DNA of 64,000 nt, taken from the NCBI RefSeq assembly GCF_963675165.1, contig NC_087393.1, positions 1,327,002 through 1,391,001 on the forward strand, given 5' to 3'. A model generated the notes under the pieces. That model made no database searches. It was not told the origin of the DNA and saw only the letters and a list, made by a program, of their open reading frames with translations. Within the stretch, counting starts at the first letter, position 1, and every line of letters starts with the position of its first letter. This document shows positions 49,222-62,797 of this stretch, piece after piece. This stretch comes from Halichondria panicea. Lineage: Eukaryota > Porifera > Demospongiae > Suberitida > Halichondriidae. Made by a program: the position numbers and the translations under genes.

Positions 49222-51419
49222 TCATATTTCGAATATCCTTATTGAATTGCAGGTTAAAGATCCATCAGACTTAGCTAACTCACTATTTGGTATTTCAACA
49301 GTTGGACATTTCATTGTTTTCCACACTTCGTAACTTCTGGGGTATTCTTCTTTTGGTGGGTGGAGGACAACACCATTAACAAACAGACAGTTTGCACCAT
49401 TGTCATCAGGAAAAATTAACTGTTTGTACTTGTGAGCACCAAATGACTCCATATCCTTCCATGCTTGTCTCCCAGCAGGACTATTGCTAATAGCAAGAAT
49501 GTCCACACCTGCCAATGAACACACAGATTTTAAGTGTAGTGTGCCCTTTGGTACCTTCACTCCAGTTACAGGCCAGCCAGAGAACACTTTCGACAGATAC
49601 TCAATCCCTGCCTGTTGTATATAAAGCATAAAATGTGTACAATGACAAGTGTGTACATGTGGTGGTATGAGTAATTATGGAGAGATAATTATAATAAACA
49701 ATGCAACACTGAGTTCATGACATCATAGTGATCACACTGTGAGCATTGCCGAAAATGTATTGAAAAATATAAGTAATGTTAATTAAATACTAAATGCTAT
49801 ACACTATAGAAACCAAAGGAGTAATATACATGCACTATACAGTGCGTATAGTATAGTAAGTATGTGTATGACTGAGCTGTCTAGCAAAGCAACTCAGGAG
49901 CGATAAAACTAAACCAGACACCAGACTAGAGGCATGCTGAACGAAGTTTTAGTAGTGCATGAGACACGCACTGTGGACGCTGGAATTACAAATATGGCTG
50001 GTATAATTATGTTCTGGGGATAAGCAAAAGAAAACAATTTCTAGCTTTCTAGCTTAAGTGGTTTTTTCCAATGTTCCTGGTACGGGGTCCTTTCAGCTGT
50101 AAACATGTACCTAAAAAAAAGCCGTGTGTAGCTAGCTAGCCATGCAGCCTACGTGCAAGTTCAACTTCTTAGCTTTTGCTCGACAACGAAGCTAAACTTA
50201 TTTTCACATAATTACGGTGCAAAAGTTATAAGGGGGTGGGATGACCGTGAATGATTTTCAGGGATATAGAAGCATGTGTAGACTACAATGTAGAAGTTGT
50301 AATAAGTATAATCAAGGGCATATAAAAGAAGAGAGGGCATGCAACTCCTATATGAGCAGAGTTCAAACGTGGGCGGATGAATGTGCACGACTGGGCATGA
50401 AATGCTAAAAATAGAAATTTCTATTTTTAGCACTTCATGCAAATGCACACATTCCTCCGCCCATGTTTAAACTCTGCTAGCTACGTGTACTGATAGTGGA
50501 GTTGCATGCCCTCTCTTCTTTTATACGCCCTTGGTATAATACATTTCCTGTCAATGAATAATAAAAGGTCAGAGTTCACACGGGCAGTACCGGTACATGC
50601 GATATGCAAGTCGAGAAAGAAGCTTTATTTTGCAAATCCATGAATCAAAATCCGAGAGAACGTGGCTAGAAGCCTGTAGAAACTGTTAGGTTTGGTTGCA
50701 ACCGCTGAACAGTTACAGCTGGAACAAACACACACACACACACAGCTAGCTTTTACCGTATTCCTTGTGTGGCTACGCCTGCGCCTCGAGGCATAATAAT
50801 TCTAGAAGATGTCAAAATACGGTCCGGTTTCAGCTTTATGATAACAACACCATAACTAATAAAAAGGCTGTCATGACAGTGAAATTTAAAATAACAACTG
50901 TTGTCTTACCTCATTGGTTCGTTCACTCAATCCAATAAAAAATTCTCTACCCGTGAACAGAACATCTCCACCGTCCAAGAAAGCACCAGGCTTTTTCATC
51001 TCAACTATATCAAGGTTCATACTTTCGAGTACCTTTCTCATTGGTTCAATCTCTCCAGCACGAGATGGAGGTGCCATCTTGGTTAACAGAGCCACGCCAT
51101 TCAGTATCACAGCAGGCTCTTCCACGTACACCTGATCTGGGAATCTATCATCAGCAGGGACTTCTACAATGGTAGGTATCAACTTTCGAAGTTCAGAAAC
51201 ATAGATGGAATGCTCTTGTTTAGCTTTCTCGATGACGATTGCTTTATCAGGTTGATCAATTCGAAGGGAGTTTTTAACAAAGTTTTCATTGATGCTTTCA
51301 GGGCTGCCAACTATGGCTCTTTGGAAGTGGAAATAATCTGCCACACTGTGAGAACTTCTACCTTTGATTGTGACCATCCAACGGGACCCTCTTTTTAGGA
51401 GTGGAAATAGAACGCTCAT
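49222..51419 (-). CDS. DDAH: Dimethylarginine dimethylaminohydrolase
   Basis: Two exons on the minus strand, 50910-51419 and 49222-49611, phase 0, 299 aa. The enzyme hydrolyses asymmetric dimethylarginine to citrulline and dimethylamine, which relieves inhibition of nitric oxide synthase. Family marks: DQVYVEEPAVILNGVALLT, FLDGGDVLFTGREFF, GLSERTNE, then GTLHLKSVCSLAG with the catalytic His (196), PDDNGANC, EEYPRS, and SLTCNSI with the catalytic Cys (291). Both catalytic residues are kept, so it is probably active. The N-terminus (MSVLFPLLKRGSRWM) is longer than in vertebrates; a second ATG 14 codons on (MVTIKGRSSH) is equally plausible. No signal peptide. The 1.3-kb intron contains the family F MITE and another dispersed repeat. 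Confidence 0.95.
50313..50533. mobile_element. Foldback MITE, family F, 221 bp
   Basis: Sister of 42626-42836 with near-identical arms. A perfect 7-bp duplication GTATAAT flanks it (50306-50312, 50534-50540). It lies in the DDAH intron. Confidence 0.8.
50600..50795. repeat. Dispersed repeat with AAGCTTTATTTTGCAAATCC
   Basis: The same order of blocks (aagctttattttgcaaatcc, ctagaagcctgtagaaact, a CA tract, ctcgaggcataat) is found at about 6250-6415 and, in part, 15945-16085. Type unknown. Confidence 0.55.
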
Positions 51420-51762
51420 TTTTCCCCAGTGCAGATTAGTTGCTGGCCAGATTCGCAAGAGCAAGAGCTATTGATTGCAAAAAGGTTGCTCTTTGACTTG
51501 AACTTTTGACATAGATAGTTTTTAACAACAAAAATGGTCATCATTACCCACTCTTTGAGTTTCCTGGATTTTGCATGCAGCAAAATTGCAAGCAATCCCT
51601 GATCTTCATCACAATTATAAAAAGGCGGCCGAGAAGTGCAATACCCTAGCTCAACCAATAATAAATACATCAGTGTTTGAAATTCCTGCAAACCAACAAA
51701 GGCTTCGATCATCCCTCCACTTTGTCAGCTCTAAACCCATAATATAAATAATTATGTTATGG

Positions 51763-52552: not shown

Positions 52553-53898
52553 TTACAAGATCTTCATGGGTACCATCTCACTTTCTCCTTCGCTTGGCCG
52601 TCGCTCTTCTTCTGCCAAAACAAGGAGAATAAAATGTGACCTGTCGCACATCCTTATACACATCATTGCTACTATTGATGTACTTATCCTCACCTATACT
52701 ATGTTCCTTTTCCTGCGGTGGGCGCCATGCACCTGAGGAAAAAGAGTTTTTAGCTGTAATCATCAGTCTGAGAATAGGGCTTGGCAAATTATGCTAACAT
52801 AATTTTTGGAATAATAGGGAGACTTCTAGCAACAAGCATAATTGAGAATAGTAGAGCACTTAATTAGCATAATTTGACCCTTAGGTGGACGTAGCTATAG
52901 ATAGACATCTATATTACTGTACTGTAAGCACTCTAGGCAGGCAGGGAGAAGAATATTTTTTTCGGCACAGAGGATTATATTTCACTTTCTGTAATGCTAC
53001 CTCAGGTATATAGCCCGTTTGGTCCTGGGCCGATTTTTTTTTATAGAACAAAGTTGAAAAATACTAGCTAGAGACAACGAGGCTGGGAACGAGGCTACCT
53101 CAGGTATAGAATAAATTGTTGTCTTTAAACTGGAATAATAGGCTGACTTTTTGACAAAAAGAATAATAGAAAGCATAATTTGCCAAGGTCTATCTGAGAG
53201 TATAAACACTTGAAGGATGCATGGCAATGAATTGTTCTTTTCATGTGAAACATATTGTACTCACCCTGGATCTTGATTTCCCTTGTAGGGTCAAAGCTAT
53301 CCAGACAGTATTTTATGACCCTCTTGCATCCAGCATCGCTTAACCATTCACGAAGATTGTCAAGATTGTCAGGTTCAACTTCCAATTGCTTCTCTGCCAC
53401 TTCAAAGAACTCAAGCAAACGTAGAGTGTAGTCCTTGTTGTGTAATGGCTTTGATAGAGTGTTGAGAGTTGTGCGAGGCTTAAAAGTATCTCCTGCTGTA
53501 TTGATAATCCTGGTTGCTGCACCTTCATCGTTTGCAATACTAGCCACAATTTTCAGAAGCATTGCACGAAGGTGAACCATTGGTGTAAGTGATTCGGGCA
53601 CGAAGTACGCTTCAGTAACATATTCTTGCAGGTTTGCAAGCCAATCAGTAGGGCACACTTGGGTCTCATTTAAAACATACCAAAACCTTGCAAGACCTCC
53701 TTCTTTATCTTTGAGAGTTTCAAAGTAGATTCGACTGATGAGATTCTCACCGTTCAGTACTTGTTTAGGTGCATTTGGTGGTAGAATAGGAGCCAGCAAA
53801 AAGCACACTCGATCATAGTTTAGAGACTTAGGTGGAATTTCTTGACTGATATCTTCGATAAGTTGTAACAATTTTTTGCTTTTTATAGATGACGCCAT
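52553..53898 (-). CDS. Free-standing copy of the NLR N-terminal module
   Basis: Exons on the minus strand: 53265-53898, 52694-52732, 52553-52611; GT-AG, phase 1 throughout; 243 aa from MASSIKSKK. The first ~205 residues align without large gaps with residues 1-200 of the NLR at 55547-59859: LQEYV (90 vs 83), LRAMLLKIVASI vs LRELLSTIAVSM (110 vs 104), NLDNLREWLSDAG vs DLEELRELLLERG, and SFDPTRE vs SFCPSRP. In both genes exon 1 ends right after this module in phase 1. It looks all-helical and DED-like (VCFLLAPILPP), a weak call. The protein then ends in a short charged tail and has no NACHT or LRR. It may be a decoy, adaptor or regulator of the NLR; that is inference. Confidence 0.8.
53011..53097. 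mobile_element. Short TAGCC-ended insertion
   Basis: An 87-bp stretch starting tagcccgttt and ending acgaggcta is flanked by an 11-bp direct repeat cctcaggtata (53000-53010, 53098-53108). The ends resemble the element at 21030-22131. It is intronic in the short NLR paralogue. Confidence 0.45.
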
Positions 53899-55097
53899 TT
53901 GATTTGGACTTAGCTGTAAGTACAAATACATTCATGATTATTAACGACTGCATAGGCATAGAATTTTATGGTGCCATGCCCATAATTATTCAACATCTAG
54001 ACTATGGGGTGCCGTTTGTGTCAAAATCCAAAAAGAGTCGATGTTATGAAATAGAGTTGACGTTATAAAAAAATCTATGTTTTAATTAGGAGTCGATGTT
54101 ATAAATAAGTCGATGTGTTTACCATAACATTAGAGTAGGCCTATTCTGTGTTTTGTAGTAAGTCGACCTTTACTAATACGATTTAATAACAGTAAAACTG
54201 GAGAGTGTAGGAAGCTGGAGCCGAGGTGTGCTGCACAGAACAGACTGGAGAAACCCAATGAGTGACCTTAATGAACTAAGGTCAGCCTGCCCTGTGCAGC
54301 ACCACTCTCCAGTTTACCGTTAAATTGAACTTAAATCGTATTAGTAAAGGTGGACTTACTAACAAAACACAGAATACCAGATAAATTGTTATGGTAAACA
54401 TTTGACTCCCTTGTAACGTCGACTCCATTTCATAACATCGACTATTTTTATAACATTGACTCCGACTGGACTGTGTAAACATTGACTGATTTTAGAATTG
54501 CATGAACTAGTAATTTTGACACAAACAGCACCCCTTTTTAAAACATCAACCTTTATAACATCGACTCTTTTTATAATGTCGACTCCATTTCATAAGATCG
54601 ACTCTTATTGGATTTTGACACACCCATATCGATTTATATCAGATAGATCTACAGATACTGAGATAATTATATAACTATAGCTTTCAACTGATGCTTCATT
54701 TCAATAGCTTATAATACATAGACTGTACTATTATTTAAGACTCACATCACAGCAGACTCACCGTCCAGTTATTAAAAAAACTTGTTGGCTGTTGGCGCTT
54801 GGCCGAGCTGTGGTTTTCACTACCCCAAATGAATGTGGTCTAATCTCTAGATCTATGTTAATTTCCCAGCACTGCACTAAGTGCAGCATGGGGAAAGATC
54901 TATGTCATGAATAATGATGTATAGTTCTCATCACCTATGTACACGCATGAGCTGTTCATGTTGTTGTCTCTATATGATATACTAAAAGTGTCGAGCTTCT
55001 GCCATTCCTTGAGAGTCAGACTTGAGAGAGCAATTGGAAGCTATATATATACATGTATAGTATAGGTGAGAACAACCACACAGCATAACAAGATAGT
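53899..55097. other. Gap between the short paralogue and the NLR gene
   Basis: Most of it is one inverted-repeat element (54006-54625). The rest holds no exon I can support. Confidence 0.45.
54006..54625. mobile_element. Non-autonomous element with GTCGATGTTAT motifs
   Basis: The left end (ggtgccgtttgtgtcaaaat) and the reverse complement of the right end (gggtgtgtcaaaatccaata) share ~70 bp. A second inverted pair with 'tactaatacgattta' lies inside. The motif gagtcgatgttat repeats many times near both ends. Confidence 0.6.
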
Positions 55098-55337
55098 ATG
55101 ATCACCAAATCAAATGCACTGAACAAGTCTGGCAAATGGGTGACTGTTGGTTGGATCAGTTTTAGCCAGCTGAGCCAGCTCGATTGGGTGGGACTGTCAA
55201 CTCATAGACTGCATGTGCTGCCTCAGTACCTGCTATACGATGTGTTCTTTTCTCCCTGTAGCACTGGTCATGGTGCTATATACTCCGTGACTAATTCTGG
55301 TGTTCGAGTATACCACAATGACGGTCATGCACGTTAA
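55098..55337 (+). pseudogene. Fragment resembling purple acid phosphatase exon 2
   Basis: The open frame starts MITKSNALNKSGKWVTVGW and contains SQLDWVGL. It parallels phosphatase exon 2 (62443-62618: ALNRSGDWLTVYW, SSLDWVGL), also at the DNA level (ctcgattgggt). It lies on the opposite strand from the phosphatase and lacks all metal-binding regions. The following residues (STGHGAIYSV) do not match. It could be a small gene of its own, but an inverted partial duplicate is more likely. Confidence 0.45.
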
Positions 55338-55546
55338 ACAACTTTTGTGTACACGCATGTCCATACATGCTCTTTTGTTATAAAAATTATTAAAATTGTG
55401 TTTGTACAAAAACTAGTGTGGGATGGGGATGTAATGTAAAATTAGTGTGTGTAGTGTAGTGTAAAATAGAGCAGTGTGAATGAGTTATCTTAACAGCTAG
55501 TAATTCGGATACGCTACAGTTAGAGTATGCAATACGTTATTAAGAG

Positions 55547-58500
55547 CTAAACAGCAACCCTTAGGTCACATCTTTCAGTAAGTTGAGGTGTGCGGTTGAC
55601 GACAGCAGATCGTATTGCAATCTTGCCCACATCCGTCATGTCATGGTTGTAGTAGATTCTGCAAGGAATATATCAAGTCAATAATTTTTCATACTACCGT
55701 AAAGCACCTTAATTTTCAAGGCGCTTAATTTTTGCTGTTTTTGTGTTTTGAGGGTTAGCAATATCCTTCACAAACCAAAATAGCACGAAATTCATTCAAT
55801 GGAATGTTTTTAGAGGCACTTAAAAAGTGCCTAGAAAATTTCGTGCTATATAGTATTATAATCCTGGAACTTATAATTATAGCGATAATATTAATTCAAA
55901 CTGACCTCATTTGCACAAGAGTGTCTGTAAACTCCAGGTAGCTAGCCAAGGCAAGAGCACCACTATCCCCTATCACATTCTCCACAAGACTGTGCATGAG
56001 GTATCCTTTAAAAGTTAAATCTTCATAAATCTTAATATCATGCACCTCACGGTCTTGAGAGATGTGGCTTTCCTAAGGCCTGGAAGCATGTCAATGACCC
56101 CCTTATCTCCAAGTTTGTTTTGATAAAGCCTGCATAATTATGAAAGGATGAAATCATAATAGGGCACGTAAAATCTATAGTTATTGTGGTAGAATATAAA
56201 GCATTGCACACACTCACTCAACAGTCTCCAACTTTTGTAGAGTTGCAAAAATCTCATTTAAATGAGCACCAGACTTTCCCGTCAAACTTGTCCCACGTAG
56301 ACTGGAGAAATGAGGTAGTAATTAGGTGCACACACAAGAACAATACAACAAACCCATACCCTAAAATTTTCAGCTCTGTGCACTTGAGCAAGCCCTGCTT
56401 CATTTCTCCTAGTCCTTTGTCGCTAATAGGATTGTAGCTGATACTGTGAAATAAGAGATTATTGGTAGGCAACAACATAGCCTTGTGGGACTACTTACTA
56501 GAATGTGTGAAGCTGAGGCAAGTTTTCCAAAATACTTGAAACGTGGCTTCCGGAGTCCATATCAAGATCATTCCGAGACACTCTGCACAAAAATCAACCA
56601 CACATGTTAACAAGCACGTACATGTACATACATTACATGACTGTACGTTACATCCATGTCAGTCGCCCACATAAAATTACTGTGATGTTACAAGTGATAC
56701 GTCACATAATTATATACACATACATGAATGTCTGCAGCTTGGTCATGTCCCTGATAACTGGAGCAAGGTACTGAAAACGTGCAGTCTCGAGCTTGTTCCC
56801 ATACAGCCTATAAAACAAATCATAAATATAGGTAATGACAAGTCTCCATACAAATCAAAGAATCAAGGAATAAAATGTTTAGGTGTATATACATTGTAGC
56901 ATGTGCATGCATAAAACACATCTGTGCCAATTATACCACTAGCTGGTCCCATTATTAATCAGTGCATGATCAGTCACCACACCACCACACGGTCACATAC
57001 ATAGTGCAAGTACAATACAGACACACGTAAACATGAGATACCATAATTATGGGCTACTATTTTCTTAGCTAAACAATGGTATTTACGAACAGAAAATAAC
57101 TATAAATGGGTGGAAAATAGCATTAACATAATTACGTATCTGTCCCTTAATTACTAACCTCAGCTCTTTGAGGTTTGGCAGCCTCTGGAGTAGCTTGGTA
57201 AGTGCTGGTGCTCCTTCAGTTCCCACTGCTCGGTCAATCCTCGCTCTGAGTCTGTGGGACAAACATGATTGTCGCACAGTTAAGTTGCGGAGTTACATAA
57301 GCAGCCATGCAATCAATCACAAAGCAAACGTACAAAGAATCTAAGCAAAGGTATATAGCCTTAGCTACATAAGTAATGTACAGTGTTTTAATTACCTGAG
57401 TAGGTGTACTGCCTCCAGAGTATTTTCCAGCTGGTCCACGAGAGCTCCGATGCCCTCAGGCCCGATGTGACAATAGCTGAGATCAATCTCATTAACTTCA
57501 CTGTGGGCACTAGAGGTAACATTTCCCACGGCAGCACAATCAGATGGGGTGAGCGAAATGTCGTTGACATCCATTCGTCCGTGCAGCTGAGTGACAAGAT
57601 CGACACAGGCGGCAACATTTTTCGACTCGAAGGCACAGTGAACCATGTTGAGGGACGCAATCCGACGCTCGGAAGATACATTGCGATTGGAGATTTCATG
57701 GAAGGCTTTCGTAAAGAAGCTGGGTGAGGTCTTGACTCCAGGCTTTTGTGAAAGACCACAATAAAACTTCCAGACAACCCACATGTGATCCATGCCGCCC
57801 ATAGGTGATCTAATGACGTTTAATTGCTCAGACTGTTCACAAAAATAGAGCAAATGGCAAGCGGACAAAAACTCCTGCAGGGTGAGATGAAGGAAGCTAA
57901 ACGATTTTGTCGGGAGTGAACTGTCAGCGATGATACGATCAACGGTCAGTAATCCAAGGGAGTCAAATGCTTTTTTCCTGTAGTTGACTGGTAGCTTCAT
58001 ACTACCCATTTCGAGGATATCTTTGCCCGTGAAAATTTGCTTCTGATCTGCTGTGGCTTTGAATGCTAGCAAGCAGATGCTTTGAAAGATTGGTTTCTTC
58101 TCGTCTGGAATTTGAGAGAGTGCGTGAAGCTCTTCTTCATCATCCTCATCATCAGAATTACTTTTCCCACGGAGGAAAGAGCGGTAGAGGGTGTGCAGAG
58201 TGAACTTGTAGTAAAGATCGGTTTCTGCATCAGGAAGCTTTTGACCTACACTGAACAAGTAAACTACCATAGCAAGATGGAGAGGGAGATAGCACATTCG
58301 AGCGATGTTGGGATGCTTGTCCAAGTAATTCAGAAGGATTTTGGCTTTGTGTCGATTTTCTTTGAATGCATGCTCCACATATGCTGTGATTTCTTTCTGC
58401 AAAAAGCCAATGATCTCCACATGCTTGCTGAATCGCAAATCATTCCTAAGAGGAGCAGAGCCGGCAGGACGAGAAGCCATAACAATGCTGGCCTTTGGTA

Positions 58501-59859
58501 GCAATTGTCCAACAAGAAGCTTCTTAATCAAATTGGTGTTATCTTTCAAGTGGCCATACTCATCCAAACCATCTAAAAGCAGACAGACACCTTTCCCACC
58601 GGTTTTCGTCACTTCGTCAATCACAGAATACACAACACGGCTATTGGCACTATACTGTCCAAAAATATCTTCAAGGCTAACATCTTTCTTGCCAAGAAAT
58701 TGACGCAATCGAACCAGAACCAGAATTTGCATATCTTGCAAAATGTCACCATTTGCCCAATCTTTGCTGACTTTGGTGAGAAGAGTGGATTTACCACATG
58801 CAGGGCGACCTTCGATCAAAACTAGTGTTCTCCCTCGAGGTTTTGTTGAGGGCAGCTTTGGGAACACGTTTTCGTAGCAGGTGGGCATTTTTCTCGACAT
58901 GACATCGTCGACAGAGCCTCGGACGGTAGCTCGACTGAAATGGTCATTGCGTGGCATCGGATCAGACGTGATGAGTGCAAGGTTGATGTAATGAACCTTG
59001 GTAACGGGTGGCCACTGATCAATGGGAAATTCGGGCATAACCTGGTACGTTTCAATCAAGTTATCTCGATAGTGAACTGAAACAAAAAAGAAACATCATA
59101 AAAGCAAATAATTACATGTACTCACTGTCAATCAACGTACCACTTCCTGAATGCGTTAGAGGCTCAATGGCGACTTTCAACTCTGAAATAAAAATATATA
59201 CACAGTTGATTACAAGCACATTGCACGAGAAATTGTTACCTACCAACATCCATGACTGCTAGTGTGTACGGACGGCTTGGGCAGAAACTCCCCAGCTGAT
59301 TCTGAATAAGATCTTTTCTCCCCCTTTCTAGAAGTAGTTCCCGAAGCTCCTCCAGATCACTCCCATCTTGCTTAATTTTTCCATCTATTAGCAGTTTTTC
59401 GAACAGCTTCAACAATCTGCAATAGTTTGAACTGGCTTTGAAACGATCAGGGTTTGCCTTCAAGGTAGAAATAGCAAAGTGGTGGATAAACGGTTCTATC
59501 TCATCTTTTGATTTCATTGATACGGCAATTGTCGAAAGGAGCTCTCGCAGTTGTAGGCTTGGAAGGAGCTTGTTTGTTTCGTAAATCTTTCGACTATTGA
59601 CGTATTCTTGCAGTGCTTTGCATTGCTCATCCTTGCATATATCTTGCACAATGAATCGGATTAGAGAGACAGCAATCTGGTAGTACTCTGGGGAATGTAT
59701 TAGGAGGGATGAGAGTTCCACTAAGCTTTCAGAGCCAGTGCATTTTGGTAGCAATGCCCGAAATTGAAAACATACTCCAGCCAGAGAGTCATCAGAAGCA
59801 GCATCCTGGATCTCTTTCAGGAGGCCCAGCACGTCGTCTTGAGACCCAAGTGATCCCAT
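55547..59859 (-). CDS. NLR-type receptor: N-terminal death-fold-like module, NACHT, LRRs
   Basis: Exons on the minus strand: 59244-59859, 59141-59182, 57396-59076, 57159-57251, 56724-56807, 56499-56582, 56360-56443, 56218-56301, 56046-56129, 55906-55989, 55547-55658. All phases agree; 1015 aa. Residues 1-205 are the helical module shared with the gene at 52553-53898. The NACHT ATPase has Walker A GRPACGKST (309-317), Walker B LLLDGLDEY (385-393) and sensor SRPAG (421-425). From about residue 780 each LRR is one exon; six are exactly 84 bp in phase 2, coding 28-residue ribonuclease-inhibitor-like repeats. Animal NLRs sense microbial or stress signals in the cytosol and oligomerise; the ligand here is unknown. 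The start codon lies only 258 bp from the phosphatase stop, so the promoter is short. A diverged MITE sits in the last intron. Confidence 0.95.
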
Positions 59860-60117: not shown

Positions 60118-62797
60118 TTAATTCATTTTGTTAAGAATAATATGGTCAAATAGTGTTCCGTCATTGTGGATGTACTCGAACACCAGTGTTGTTGCATTGG
60201 CTTCAAACCGAGTGTAGCCCCAGTGCTAGAAGAAAAAAAATATTATAAGTATGTATATAATCTAAATGTAAAACTTACCAACTCATCTAGTACTTCAACA
60301 AAACTTGGAGGGGTTGGTCTAAAATGGAGAAAAATATCAATAATTCATGAAAACGGTTTAATGCGAGTCTCCAACCTGAGATCATGAAGAAGAGCTCTGC
60401 CTGCCATTCCCATGACAACGTGCACTGGAGCTCCTCCTCCTTCCTGACAGACGCCATTCACCACTGAACACATACGCTGGTAGGTGTGGTGATGACCCCA
60501 GAACGCAATGTCCACCTTGTAAGTCTACAGGGTGTGTACCAAGCACTTTCAATATGAATAATGTTTACTCCTACACATGCACTTGAATAGCTCGTTATGA
60601 ATAAGTCTTACCACCAGCAATGGTTCAATATGTTGTATCAGTAGCTTTGATACTGGTATCTGCCCTGAAGGCTCAGTCTCATTGGAACTATCTATATACA
60701 TGGGCCTAAAAGGAAACAAAGTCATACTTCCATAATATGCAATTACGTCACGCCTACCTGTGTCCTGCAAATATCAGCCAGGGAGTTTTTGTTCTGTCAA
60801 CACGCTTGAGATGATCTAAAAGATAGGTGTGTTGGGGTGAGGTGCTGGTGAAGTTGTGCTCAGTACTCATCATCACAACGTGGATGCAGCCAAAATCAAA
60901 CCCATACCTAAAGGTAGAGCCTTAGAATTAAACAATGCATGTTATACAGAAGTGTACACATCTTACCATGGCTGCTGGGGACCAGGAGTTGGCATGGCAA
61001 ATCTGTTGACATAAGGGACATTGCACTCTCCTCCAGAATCATTCTCCTGCCAGTAAGCACTGCACATTCAAATGTGAAATAATATGCACAATTAATTACT
61101 ATAGCGTCTACATGCCATGCCACTTACTCCGAGTTGGGAGAGTCGCTCTCATGGTTTCCAGGGTTGACCATACAAGGCAGCCCAGCCAGCAGTGTCTTGA
61201 CTTGGTCAAAGTACTCATCCCACTGATAATAAAGGGATGTTTTTAGTGGTTTCAATATCAAAACACTACTCACAATGGGTTCGTAACCATCAGCATAGCT
61301 TATGTCTCCAACATCAATGATGAGGTCGTGGGCTCCCATCTCACTGATCAGGTTCCTTGTAGTGTCCAGGGAGGGCTGCTCTAGTTTACGCACTTGTCGA
61401 GTGTCGTCTTTCTCACCATGACCCATGTCTACAAATAGAAAAATGATAATACTAGGACATAACATTATAGCGGGTGATTTTTGTTGGTGCAAGTTTCACT
61501 ACAAACTATATACCCATTTAAATATGTACAGCTCAGGATAGTGACGTTGAACTCTCGCAGTTTTAATCGTAGGTGCTCTACTGATATGAAAAATATGAAA
61601 TTTCCATCATACGAAAATAACCCGCTATATATACGGCAATAAAATTTAACCTCCAAATGCTAATACTCTTGTTATAACGTTTGGTCCAGTTTCAGGAGCT
61701 GACGTAAAACTGTACTCTTCACTCCAACCATAAGCAGCATCACCAAAGATGTAAAAATATTTGGTTTGTGGCTCAAGTCTATACAAAAGGGATTAAATGA
61801 ACAGCAACATTTTCAGGTCTACTTACTTTTCCAGTGTAACCTTATGGATCATTCCAGGATCTAGCCATCCATAGTCCCTTGCAGGAGAAGCACACATGTC
61901 AGTGGCTTTGTAAGTGGAGCTCACCGCCTATATAATCACAATTTAATATCTTGCTTTACATGTAAGAATACAGGTTTCATACATTCTTCATGACTGTGTA
62001 CTGCTTGCTTGTAGTGCCCCACTTCACTTGAGGAGCAGTTGCATCCCTAGTCACCCACATTAAGCTAGAGAAATAAACCAATTGAACAGCGCTACAAAGT
62101 TGCAGTGTCGATGGCTTACACCATCTCAGTAATGTCGTTGGTGAGAGCAAGATGACCGTGTAGTGGTTCATTGGGATTTTTGAAGCTGATCGGTTTAGAG
62201 ACAGCAGCCATAGTGGGTTTATCAAAACCTAAGTTATAGTGGTCGTAGTATAATGCTGAATCACTTATATTATACCTCCTCTAAAAAATCCAAAGCGATT
62301 CACTCCACGCATGTTTACAAGGTAAAATTTGAACTTTCCAAAGCCCCAATCCATGTGAGTGTTTGAGACATTGCAATACTGCAGAAAAAGACGGGATTTA
62401 AGTAATCACATGTAATAATAGAAACCATTGTTGTTTTAATACCTGATATTTGACAGGTGCTTGTGTCTTTGAGTTGATGTCAGTAGCATTGTCTGGCAGT
62501 ACCCACAGGCCAACCCAATCGAGGCTGCTCGGCTTGTCAACACCACTCCAATACACAGTAAGCCAATCTCCACTTCTGTTTAGTGCGTGATGGGACAAAG
62601 TAAGCCCAATGGATGGTTCTGCATGGAATCAAAGTAGCGGTTTTACAGGATTGCGATGCAATTACTTTTATGGTTGATATACCTAGATTCACAGTTGCTC
62701 TTTCGTGTTTGAAGGATCTCAGTGGGTTGACTTCATAATGGCAGCATACAGAAGTTAGAGTTATCAAGAACACAACAAGCTGTATCAGAGACAACAT
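60118..62797 (-). CDS. Secreted purple acid phosphatase (ACP7-like)
   Basis: Fifteen exons on the minus strand: 62683-62797, 62443-62618, 62276-62378, 62120-62228, 61983-62064, 61827-61927, 61651-61778, 61274-61428, 61128-61222, 60967-61059, 60758-60907, 60612-60705, 60376-60524, 60279-60318, 60118-60225. Phases agree; 565 aa. A signal peptide is visible (LIQLVVFLITLTSVCC). An N-terminal fibronectin-like domain (LDWVGLW, LMWVTRD) precedes the metallophosphatase domain, whose metal-binding blocks are all present: GGDMG, GDISYADGYE, GNHES, IFAGHR, GHHHTYQR. The family hydrolyses phosphate monoesters with a dinuclear Fe-metal centre in the secretory route or outside the cell. Exon 4 must end at gtaagc (ATGGT) to keep phase. 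It starts 155 bp from the divergent gene at 62953. An intron carries a MITE relative at about 61470-61640. Confidence 0.95.

What the first reader, a model, noticed from the sequence alone, without database searches (positions are those of the whole stretch)
52553..59859. NLR next to a free-standing copy of its own N-terminal module
The first ~200 residues of the NLR and nearly all of the neighbouring 243-residue protein align in order, and both genes splice out of this module in phase 1. One gene continues into NACHT and LRRs; the other ends in a short charged tail. A receptor paired with a stand-alone signalling module suggests a decoy, inhibitor or adaptor. The shared module matches no death-fold family clearly and may be a new one.
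Basis: partly seen in the sequence, partly recalled or inferred. Interest (0 to 1): 0.75.

Follow-up and report, generated by a model that had tools for sequence, protein, structure and literature searches.

The report
DED-like NLR beside lone module gene
An animal innate-immune receptor gene with a diverged death-effector-like front end sits next to a small gene that makes only that front end, a pattern like the decoy regulators of the mammalian inflammasome; the homology is real, but the regulatory role is untested.

Summary
The NLR's first exon (205 residues) and the short gene's first exon (211 residues) are homologous end to end: Smith-Waterman z = 13, 0 of 2000 shuffles as good. The NLR is an 11-exon, 1020-aa module-NACHT-LRR gene model. 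The short gene is a two-exon, 230-aa gene model. That it is a missed NLR 5' end is argued against by two paralogues on another contig (75-78% identical): same exon 1, intron position and charged exon 2, no NACHT in the 20 kb read.

The 'new fold' reading is only partly supported. The C-terminal half is a diverged death effector domain (DED): it aligns along a DED profile built from this genome (0 of 150 column shuffles as good) and not with a CARD or this genome's commonest other NLR exon read. It stays below Pfam's DED cut-off. The N-terminal half is unassigned, weakly DED-like. AlphaFold gave pLDDT 41 and 39: no fold verdict.

The NLR keeps the DED RxDL motif; the three short proteins lack it. 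The short gene appears to belong to a block duplicated between two contigs. Best reading: a DED-type NLR plus a death-fold-only regulator family; inhibitor, adaptor or decoy role inferred.

The parts
59244..59859 (-). NLR exon 1: the 205-residue N-terminal module (N-terminal helical half, C-terminal DED-like half), ends in phase 1
   Evidence: gene model; similarity; DED-like
59126..59182 (-). NLR exon 2, 57-nt linker
57396..59076 (-). NLR exon 3: NACHT domain and the start of the leucine-rich repeats
55547..57251 (-). NLR exons 4-11 (six of the eight are 84 nt), leucine-rich-repeat exons ending in the stop codon
53265..53898 (-). short gene exon 1: free-standing copy of the module (211 residues), ends in phase 1; no gap in the 606-614 nt aligned to two C2 paralogues
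52553..52611 (-). short gene exon 2: short charged tail and stop codon, frame and acceptor conserved in both C2 paralogues
55111..55197 (+). 87-nt stretch 86% identical to a purple acid phosphatase 5' exon of the C2 locus, in the same orientation relative to the short gene there; marks a shared block (no Pfam match of its own)
60158..62744 (-). purple acid phosphatase-like gene upstream of the NLR; its body is 78-91% and its 5' part 66% identical to the phosphatase gene beside a C2 short gene

Best explanation
The NLR is a death-effector-type sensor: LRRs for sensing, NACHT for oligomerisation, and a diverged DED-like module that, once clustered, recruits other DED proteins, probably including DED-bearing initiator caspases (the genome has two places where tandem DEDs lie just upstream of a caspase domain on the same strand). 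The short gene is one of three found copies of a death-fold-only family related to the same module. With no enzyme, NACHT or LRR, and with the RxDL motif of the last helix changed in all three copies, it most likely enters or caps DED assemblies and tunes them down, as CARD-only, PYD-only and short FLIP proteins do in mammals. Shown here: homology, gene models, DED-like C-terminal half, absence of RxDL, coding constraint. Inferred: oligomerisation, partners, inhibition.
For: Homology of the modules. DED-like C-terminal half: hhalign of the four modules against 25 DED stretches of this genome, score 34.9, E = 1.1e-5 over 75 columns, 0 of 150 column shuffles as good; also 0 of 150 for the short family alone and for the NLR alone (first two repeated with a corrected tail, 0 of 100 each); against another NLR exon type 13.7 and a CARD 9.8. 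In Pfam at E <= 1 the only match of either window protein is DED, at the same place, sub-threshold. RxDL: NLR GRKDLI; short family GCKRVI, GCKKVI, GCKRVI; 13 of 25 DED stretches examined carry RxDL. Coding constraint on the short gene: exon 1 86-87% identical over 606-614 nt without a gap, while beside exon 2 no intron or flank of the short gene aligned; 59 of 3000 neutral simulations stayed free of stops. Tandem DEDs at C10:859830-860339 and C10:2922809-2923384 with caspase domains 1.9 and 0.8 kb downstream.
Against: Neither window protein reaches Pfam's DED cut-off: 15.4 and 13.3 bits against 35.9; of the C2 copies one matches CbiX (E = 0.027) better than DED (0.075) and the other matches nothing. 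A simple HMM of sponge DEDs separates the NLR module but not the short protein from shuffled decoys. AlphaFold models are unusable: pLDDT 41 and 39. At 25% identity the short protein is far less like the NLR module than known decoys are like their targets (64-97% in the passages seen of PMC3775265). dN/dS of 0.54-0.65 is mild constraint: 8 of 150 neutral simulations reached the observed mean. The NLR alone against the other two-part DED modules is equalled by 1 of 150 shuffles. No expression or interaction data.
Confidence: 0.45

Rival explanations
1. The short protein is a positive adaptor: one half binds the NLR module, the other recruits a different death-fold effector.
For: It has two parts, as two-domain adaptors do; it has diverged from the NLR module (25%) as heterotypic partners may; the absence of RxDL could mean a new binding surface.
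Against: No second recognisable domain: in the window protein the N-terminal half matches no Pfam family at E <= 1. Two of three copies have no NACHT within the 20 kb read.
Confidence: 0.25
2. The short gene works independently of this NLR, for example with other DED proteins, and the adjacency is a relic of local or block duplication.
For: A phosphatase exon fragment next to the C17 short gene is in the same relative place and orientation as the phosphatase gene next to a C2 copy; the two C2 copies stand without a NACHT in 20 kb.
Against: The NLR module's only relatives found in 131 Mb by tblastn are these short genes, and one of three lies 1.65 kb from it; by simple arithmetic (3 x 20 kb / 131 Mb) a place within 10 kb by chance is about 5 in 10,000. 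A phosphatase gene also flanks the NLR, so the NLR may have been part of the ancestral cluster.
Confidence: 0.25
3. The short genes are decaying copies without function.
For: dN/dS 0.54-0.65 is not low; 8 of 150 neutral simulations reach the observed mean.
Against: Three copies with an intact frame, no gap in 606-614 nt, conserved donor, acceptor and second exon, and an intron and flanks that do not align; all three stay stop-free in only 59 of 3000 neutral simulations.
Confidence: 0.05

Closest known systems
DED-NACHT NLRs of amphioxus, sea urchin and Nematostella (PMC2575513, passages seen); DED-bearing NLRs of sea anemones (PMC5094078, passages seen)
   Same: NLR with a death effector domain in front of NACHT; direct triggering of apoptosis through DED caspases is proposed there
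   Different: Here the DED is below the Pfam cut-off and preceded by an unassigned half of about 95 residues; no other place in this assembly beside the short genes matched the module by tblastn
CARD-only and PYD-only proteins (COP, INCA, ICEBERG, POP1, POP2; PMC3775265, passages seen)
   Same: A gene encoding only the death-fold part of a sensor, adaptor or caspase, often near the parent gene (COPs next to caspase-1, POP1 about 14 kb from ASC), with the domain in one exon
   Different: Those are restricted to higher primates and 64-97% identical to the parent domain in the passages seen; here the identity is 25%, there are three copies, and function is untested
Tandem-DED-only proteins: short FLIP forms and viral FLIPs (PMC4558505, passages seen)
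   Same: Death-fold proteins without a caspase domain; similar size and helical make-up (recalled)
   Different: Only the second half is clearly DED-like here; RxDL, reported there as critical for MC159, is absent from the three short proteins
Sponge NLR classes NLRC, NLRD, NLRX (PMC12909245: abstract, first part of Results, passages)
   Same: NACHT-LRR architecture with an N-terminal signalling exon; [quoted passage not shown]
   Different: A DED-like N-terminus would be a further class; I infer that a pipeline with Pfam cut-offs would file this gene as NLRX

Membership tests
NLR (NACHT plus LRR receptor) | NACHT domain followed by leucine-rich repeats in one gene | tested here: met
   NACHT E = 1.3e-21, LRR_6 E = 0.024 in exon 3 alone; continuous 11-exon model with repeated 84-nt LRR exons, read by eye
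Death effector domain (Pfam PF01335) | score above Pfam's gathering cut-off | tested here: not met
   15.4 (NLR) and 13.3 bits (short) against 35.9
Death effector domain (Pfam PF01335) | profile similarity along the whole DED, better than to other death-fold families | tested here: met
   75 columns, 0 of 150 shuffles as good; one other NLR exon type and one CARD do not match
Death effector domain (Pfam PF01335), NLR module | RxDL motif in the last helix | tested here: met
   RKDL
Death effector domain (Pfam PF01335), short family | RxDL motif in the last helix | tested here: not met
   CKRV, CKKV, CKRV in 3 of 3; but RxDL is exact in only 13 of 25 DED stretches of this genome, some cut short
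Death effector domain (Pfam PF01335) | six-helix antiparallel death fold | tested here: inconclusive
   AlphaFold pLDDT 41 and 39 with two-sequence alignments; Foldseek of the NLR model gave nothing at E <= 0.001
Tandem-DED protein (FLIP, caspase-8 prodomain) | two DEDs in a row | tested here: inconclusive
   N-terminal halves against the DED profile: score 19.2 over 28 columns, 0 of 100 shuffles as good but the best shuffle reached 18.3; N-terminal halves of five other two-part genes: 23.8 over 65 columns, best of 100 shuffles 15.3
Death-fold-only regulator (COP, POP) | no domain beyond the death fold | tested here: met
   230 aa, module plus short tail, in three copies
Death-fold-only regulator (COP, POP) | high identity to the target's domain | tested here: not met
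   25%
Death-fold-only regulator (COP, POP) | binds and limits the target's assembly | not testable with these tools
   needs protein experiments

The most novel reading that the evidence does not exclude
An early-branching animal has independently evolved a genetically linked sensor and death-fold-only regulator pair on a DED-like module, with the regulator family lacking the RxDL surface that the receptor keeps; COP/POP/FLIP-type control of NLR assemblies would then not be a vertebrate invention, and a class of NLRs with hidden DED-like N-termini would lie within 'NLRX'.
Probability: 0.3. Interest if true: 0.65.

Novelty: new variant of a known kind. Interest (0 to 1): 0.45.

Why it matters
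If the pairing is functional, control of NLR assemblies by free-standing death-fold proteins would extend well beyond the primate-restricted COPs and POPs. It also shows that an NLR that would be listed as lacking an N-terminal signalling domain can carry one that becomes visible only to a profile built from the same genome.

Tried and rejected
A profile search of solved-structure sequences with the four modules gave nothing better than E = 1. A scan of viral contigs found 31 pattern matches and no relative. Short-gene models with the acceptors at 52733, 52694, 52653 and 52641 give proteins of 262, 249, 240 and 236 aa, but that part of the DNA is not conserved in the paralogues. Phase-1 splicing as evidence of kinship was rejected. 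Literature searches bearing on a DED-bearing sponge NLR showed none in the listings and passages seen; NLRX in PMC12909245 includes 'a few cases' of other N-terminal domains, and PMC11508797 (passages) speaks of only NLRC and/or NLRD from sponge to amphioxus, so this is no proof of absence from print.

Full report
What is there. The window lies at G000:C17:1327002-1391001 of a 131 Mb assembly in 39 contigs. On the minus strand an NLR gene runs from 59859 to 55547 in 11 exons and encodes 1020 aa in one continuous frame: N-terminal module, a 57-nt linker exon, NACHT, then LRR exons, six of them 84 nt long (NACHT E = 1.3e-21). 1.65 kb downstream on the same strand is a short gene, 53898-52553. 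Both are gene models; no transcripts were available.

The short gene looks real and separate. Searching the assembly with its first exon finds two paralogues on contig C2, at 78% and 75% identity. Aligned to these, exon 1 is 86-87% identical over 606-614 nt without a gap. Outside exon 1, exon 2 is the part of the gene that aligns; the intron and near flanks do not (one weak further match of the query's upstream region to L007 is on the other strand). All three share the donor (GTGAGT after the first base of a codon), the acceptor and a second exon read in the same frame, giving after the junction residue EEERRPSEGESEMVPMKIL (first E from the junction), EERRPSKGESEMVPLPGNGTKMD and EDARPDKGESELVPGKNINVI. 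The protein is 230 aa. tblastn with this NLR's NACHT-LRR part finds nothing at E <= 1 in the 20 kb read around the C2 copies, while it hits 9 of 9 control loci. One search listed no NACHT place on C2, but it scored 78 of 259 candidates. Constraint is moderate: dN/dS 0.54-0.65; in neutral simulations 59 of 3000 kept all three frames free of stops, and 8 of 150 reached the observed mean dN/dS.

The shared module. The NLR's exon 1 (205 residues) and the short gene's (211) align in order: BLASTP 25% over 211 columns, E = 5e-5; three short proteins as a profile against the NLR, E = 5.6e-6 over 185 columns. The NLR's Smith-Waterman score against each of the three short proteins was reached by 0 of 2000 shuffles. 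Split in two, the C-terminal halves are reached by 0 of 2000 shuffles, the N-terminal halves by 20, and the two crossed comparisons by 479 and 1194. Genome-wide, the NLR module finds only itself, the short gene (E = 0.0018) and one C2 copy (E = 0.67) at E <= 1; the short gene does not find the NLR at E <= 0.001.

Which family. Pfam's only match at E <= 1 in either window protein is DED, sub-threshold, at the same place; of the C2 copies one has CbiX (E = 0.027) ahead of DED (0.075) and the other nothing. A Pfam DED search of the assembly gave 32 matches; I fetched 20 loci and used 25 of these stretches. An HMM from 13 of the 20 loci matches the NLR module at residues 107-186 (profile 4-72), above all 1000 shuffled decoys (12.6 against 9.7 bits); the short protein (6.4) and one C2 copy (5.2) fall among the decoys. 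Profile-profile comparison with all 25 stretches is stronger: four modules against DED 34.9 (best of 150 column shuffles 19.9), short family 29.4 (25.2), NLR alone 27.0 (20.5). The first two were repeated after correcting one typed tail residue: 35.0 and 29.4, 0 of 100 shuffles as good. The modules do not match a five-sequence profile of another NLR exon type (13.7, 19 columns) or one CARD (9.8). So the C-terminal half is DED-like. The N-terminal half is unassigned: its DED match covers 28 columns and barely exceeds the best of 100 shuffles (19.2 against 18.3); the N-terminal halves of five other two-part genes do better (23.8 over 65 columns, best shuffle 15.3), so a tandem DED is possible.

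Two-part genes. Genes of the same layout (about 100 residues, then a DED) occur at C12 and C4. All modules together align with five of them over 169 columns, 0 of 150 shuffles as good; the short family alone also 0 of 150; the NLR alone is equalled or passed by 1 of 150. AlphaFold with two sequences gave mean pLDDT 41 and 39 and is not used.

RxDL. The NLR module has RKDL near its end; the three short proteins have CKRV, CKKV and CKRV. RxDL is exact in 13 of 25 DED stretches examined, some of which are cut before that helix. PMC4558505 (passages) reports RxDL as critical for the viral FLIP MC159 but of differing importance in cellular FLIP, so its absence is suggestive only.

Other NLRs of this genome. 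Of 78 scored matches to the NACHT-LRR query I read the upstream DNA of 9. Five carry one shared helical exon (death-domain-like by eye): four have no Pfam match at E <= 0.1, the fifth an ARF7EP_C match (E = 0.0006, below cut-off) in a stretch that runs past the exon. One has a CARD (E = 5.2e-10), one a weak Death match (E = 0.0076, below cut-off), and in two I identified no N-terminal domain. The shared exon also ends in phase 1 by its donor motif in 5 of 5. The NLR of this window is at most 32% identical to any other place listed.

Origin of the adjacency. One C2 short gene stands head to head with a purple acid phosphatase gene (fn3_PAP E = 1e-9). In the window an 87-nt stretch (55111-55197, 86% identical to that phosphatase exon) has the same orientation relative to the short gene. 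A fuller phosphatase gene (60158-62744) flanks the NLR on its other side; its body is 78-91% and its 5' part 66% identical to the C2 gene. I infer that a block with phosphatase and short gene was copied between contigs and rearranged. The direction is not resolved: the three short genes are about equally far apart. Linkage of the NLR to its only found relatives is unlikely by chance, but may reflect origin rather than function.

Mechanism. From established knowledge, NLRs oligomerise through NACHT and signal by clustering death-fold domains. DED-NACHT receptors have been described in amphioxus, sea urchin and Nematostella, with direct triggering of apoptosis through caspases of the same prodomain type proposed (PMC2575513, passages), and DED-bearing NLRs in sea anemones (PMC5094078, passages). 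This genome has tandem DEDs 1.9 kb and 0.8 kb upstream of caspase domains on the same strand at two places on C10; that each is one gene is inferred. Death-fold-only proteins that damp such assemblies are known and often sit near the parent gene (PMC3775265, passages). I therefore favour a DED-type sensor with a death-fold-only modulator family, most likely inhibitory; adaptor and NLR-independent roles remain open.

Verdict. A real, well-supported homologous gene pair; a diverged variant of known kinds rather than a clear new fold; function untested.

Noticed in passing
window 54017-54622: Foldback element with 55-nt arms, 91% complementary, and nested inverted repeats, starting about 120 bases upstream of the short gene's start codon; looks like a MITE.
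   Followed up: no
L038, L039, L041 (C12) and L040 (C4): Two-part DED modules at C12 are followed on the same strand by long ORFs with membrane-spanning stretches (by eye) and no Pfam match above cut-off; the one at C4 is followed by weak, sub-cut-off Roc and COR-A matches (E = 0.006, 0.017), suggesting DED modules on other signalling proteins.
   Followed up: partly
L009, L013, L014, L016, L017 (C7, C11, C1): Five of nine NLRs read upstream share an N-terminal helical exon, death-domain-like by eye, with no Pfam match above cut-off, so these would probably be filed as NLRX; most places listed are on C7.
   Followed up: partly
L008:2496-3867: Long ORFs about 2 kb before the second C2 short gene look helical and death-domain-like by eye; no Pfam match at E <= 0.1.
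   Followed up: partly
L007:7958-8325 and L008:7265-7649: A 78% identical stretch follows both C2 short genes, so the two C2 copies look like a block duplication of each other.
   Followed up: no
window 50886-51467: Next ORF downstream of the short gene matches eukaryotic dimethylarginine dimethylaminohydrolase (DDAH, E = 1.9e-5, just above cut-off).
   Followed up: yes
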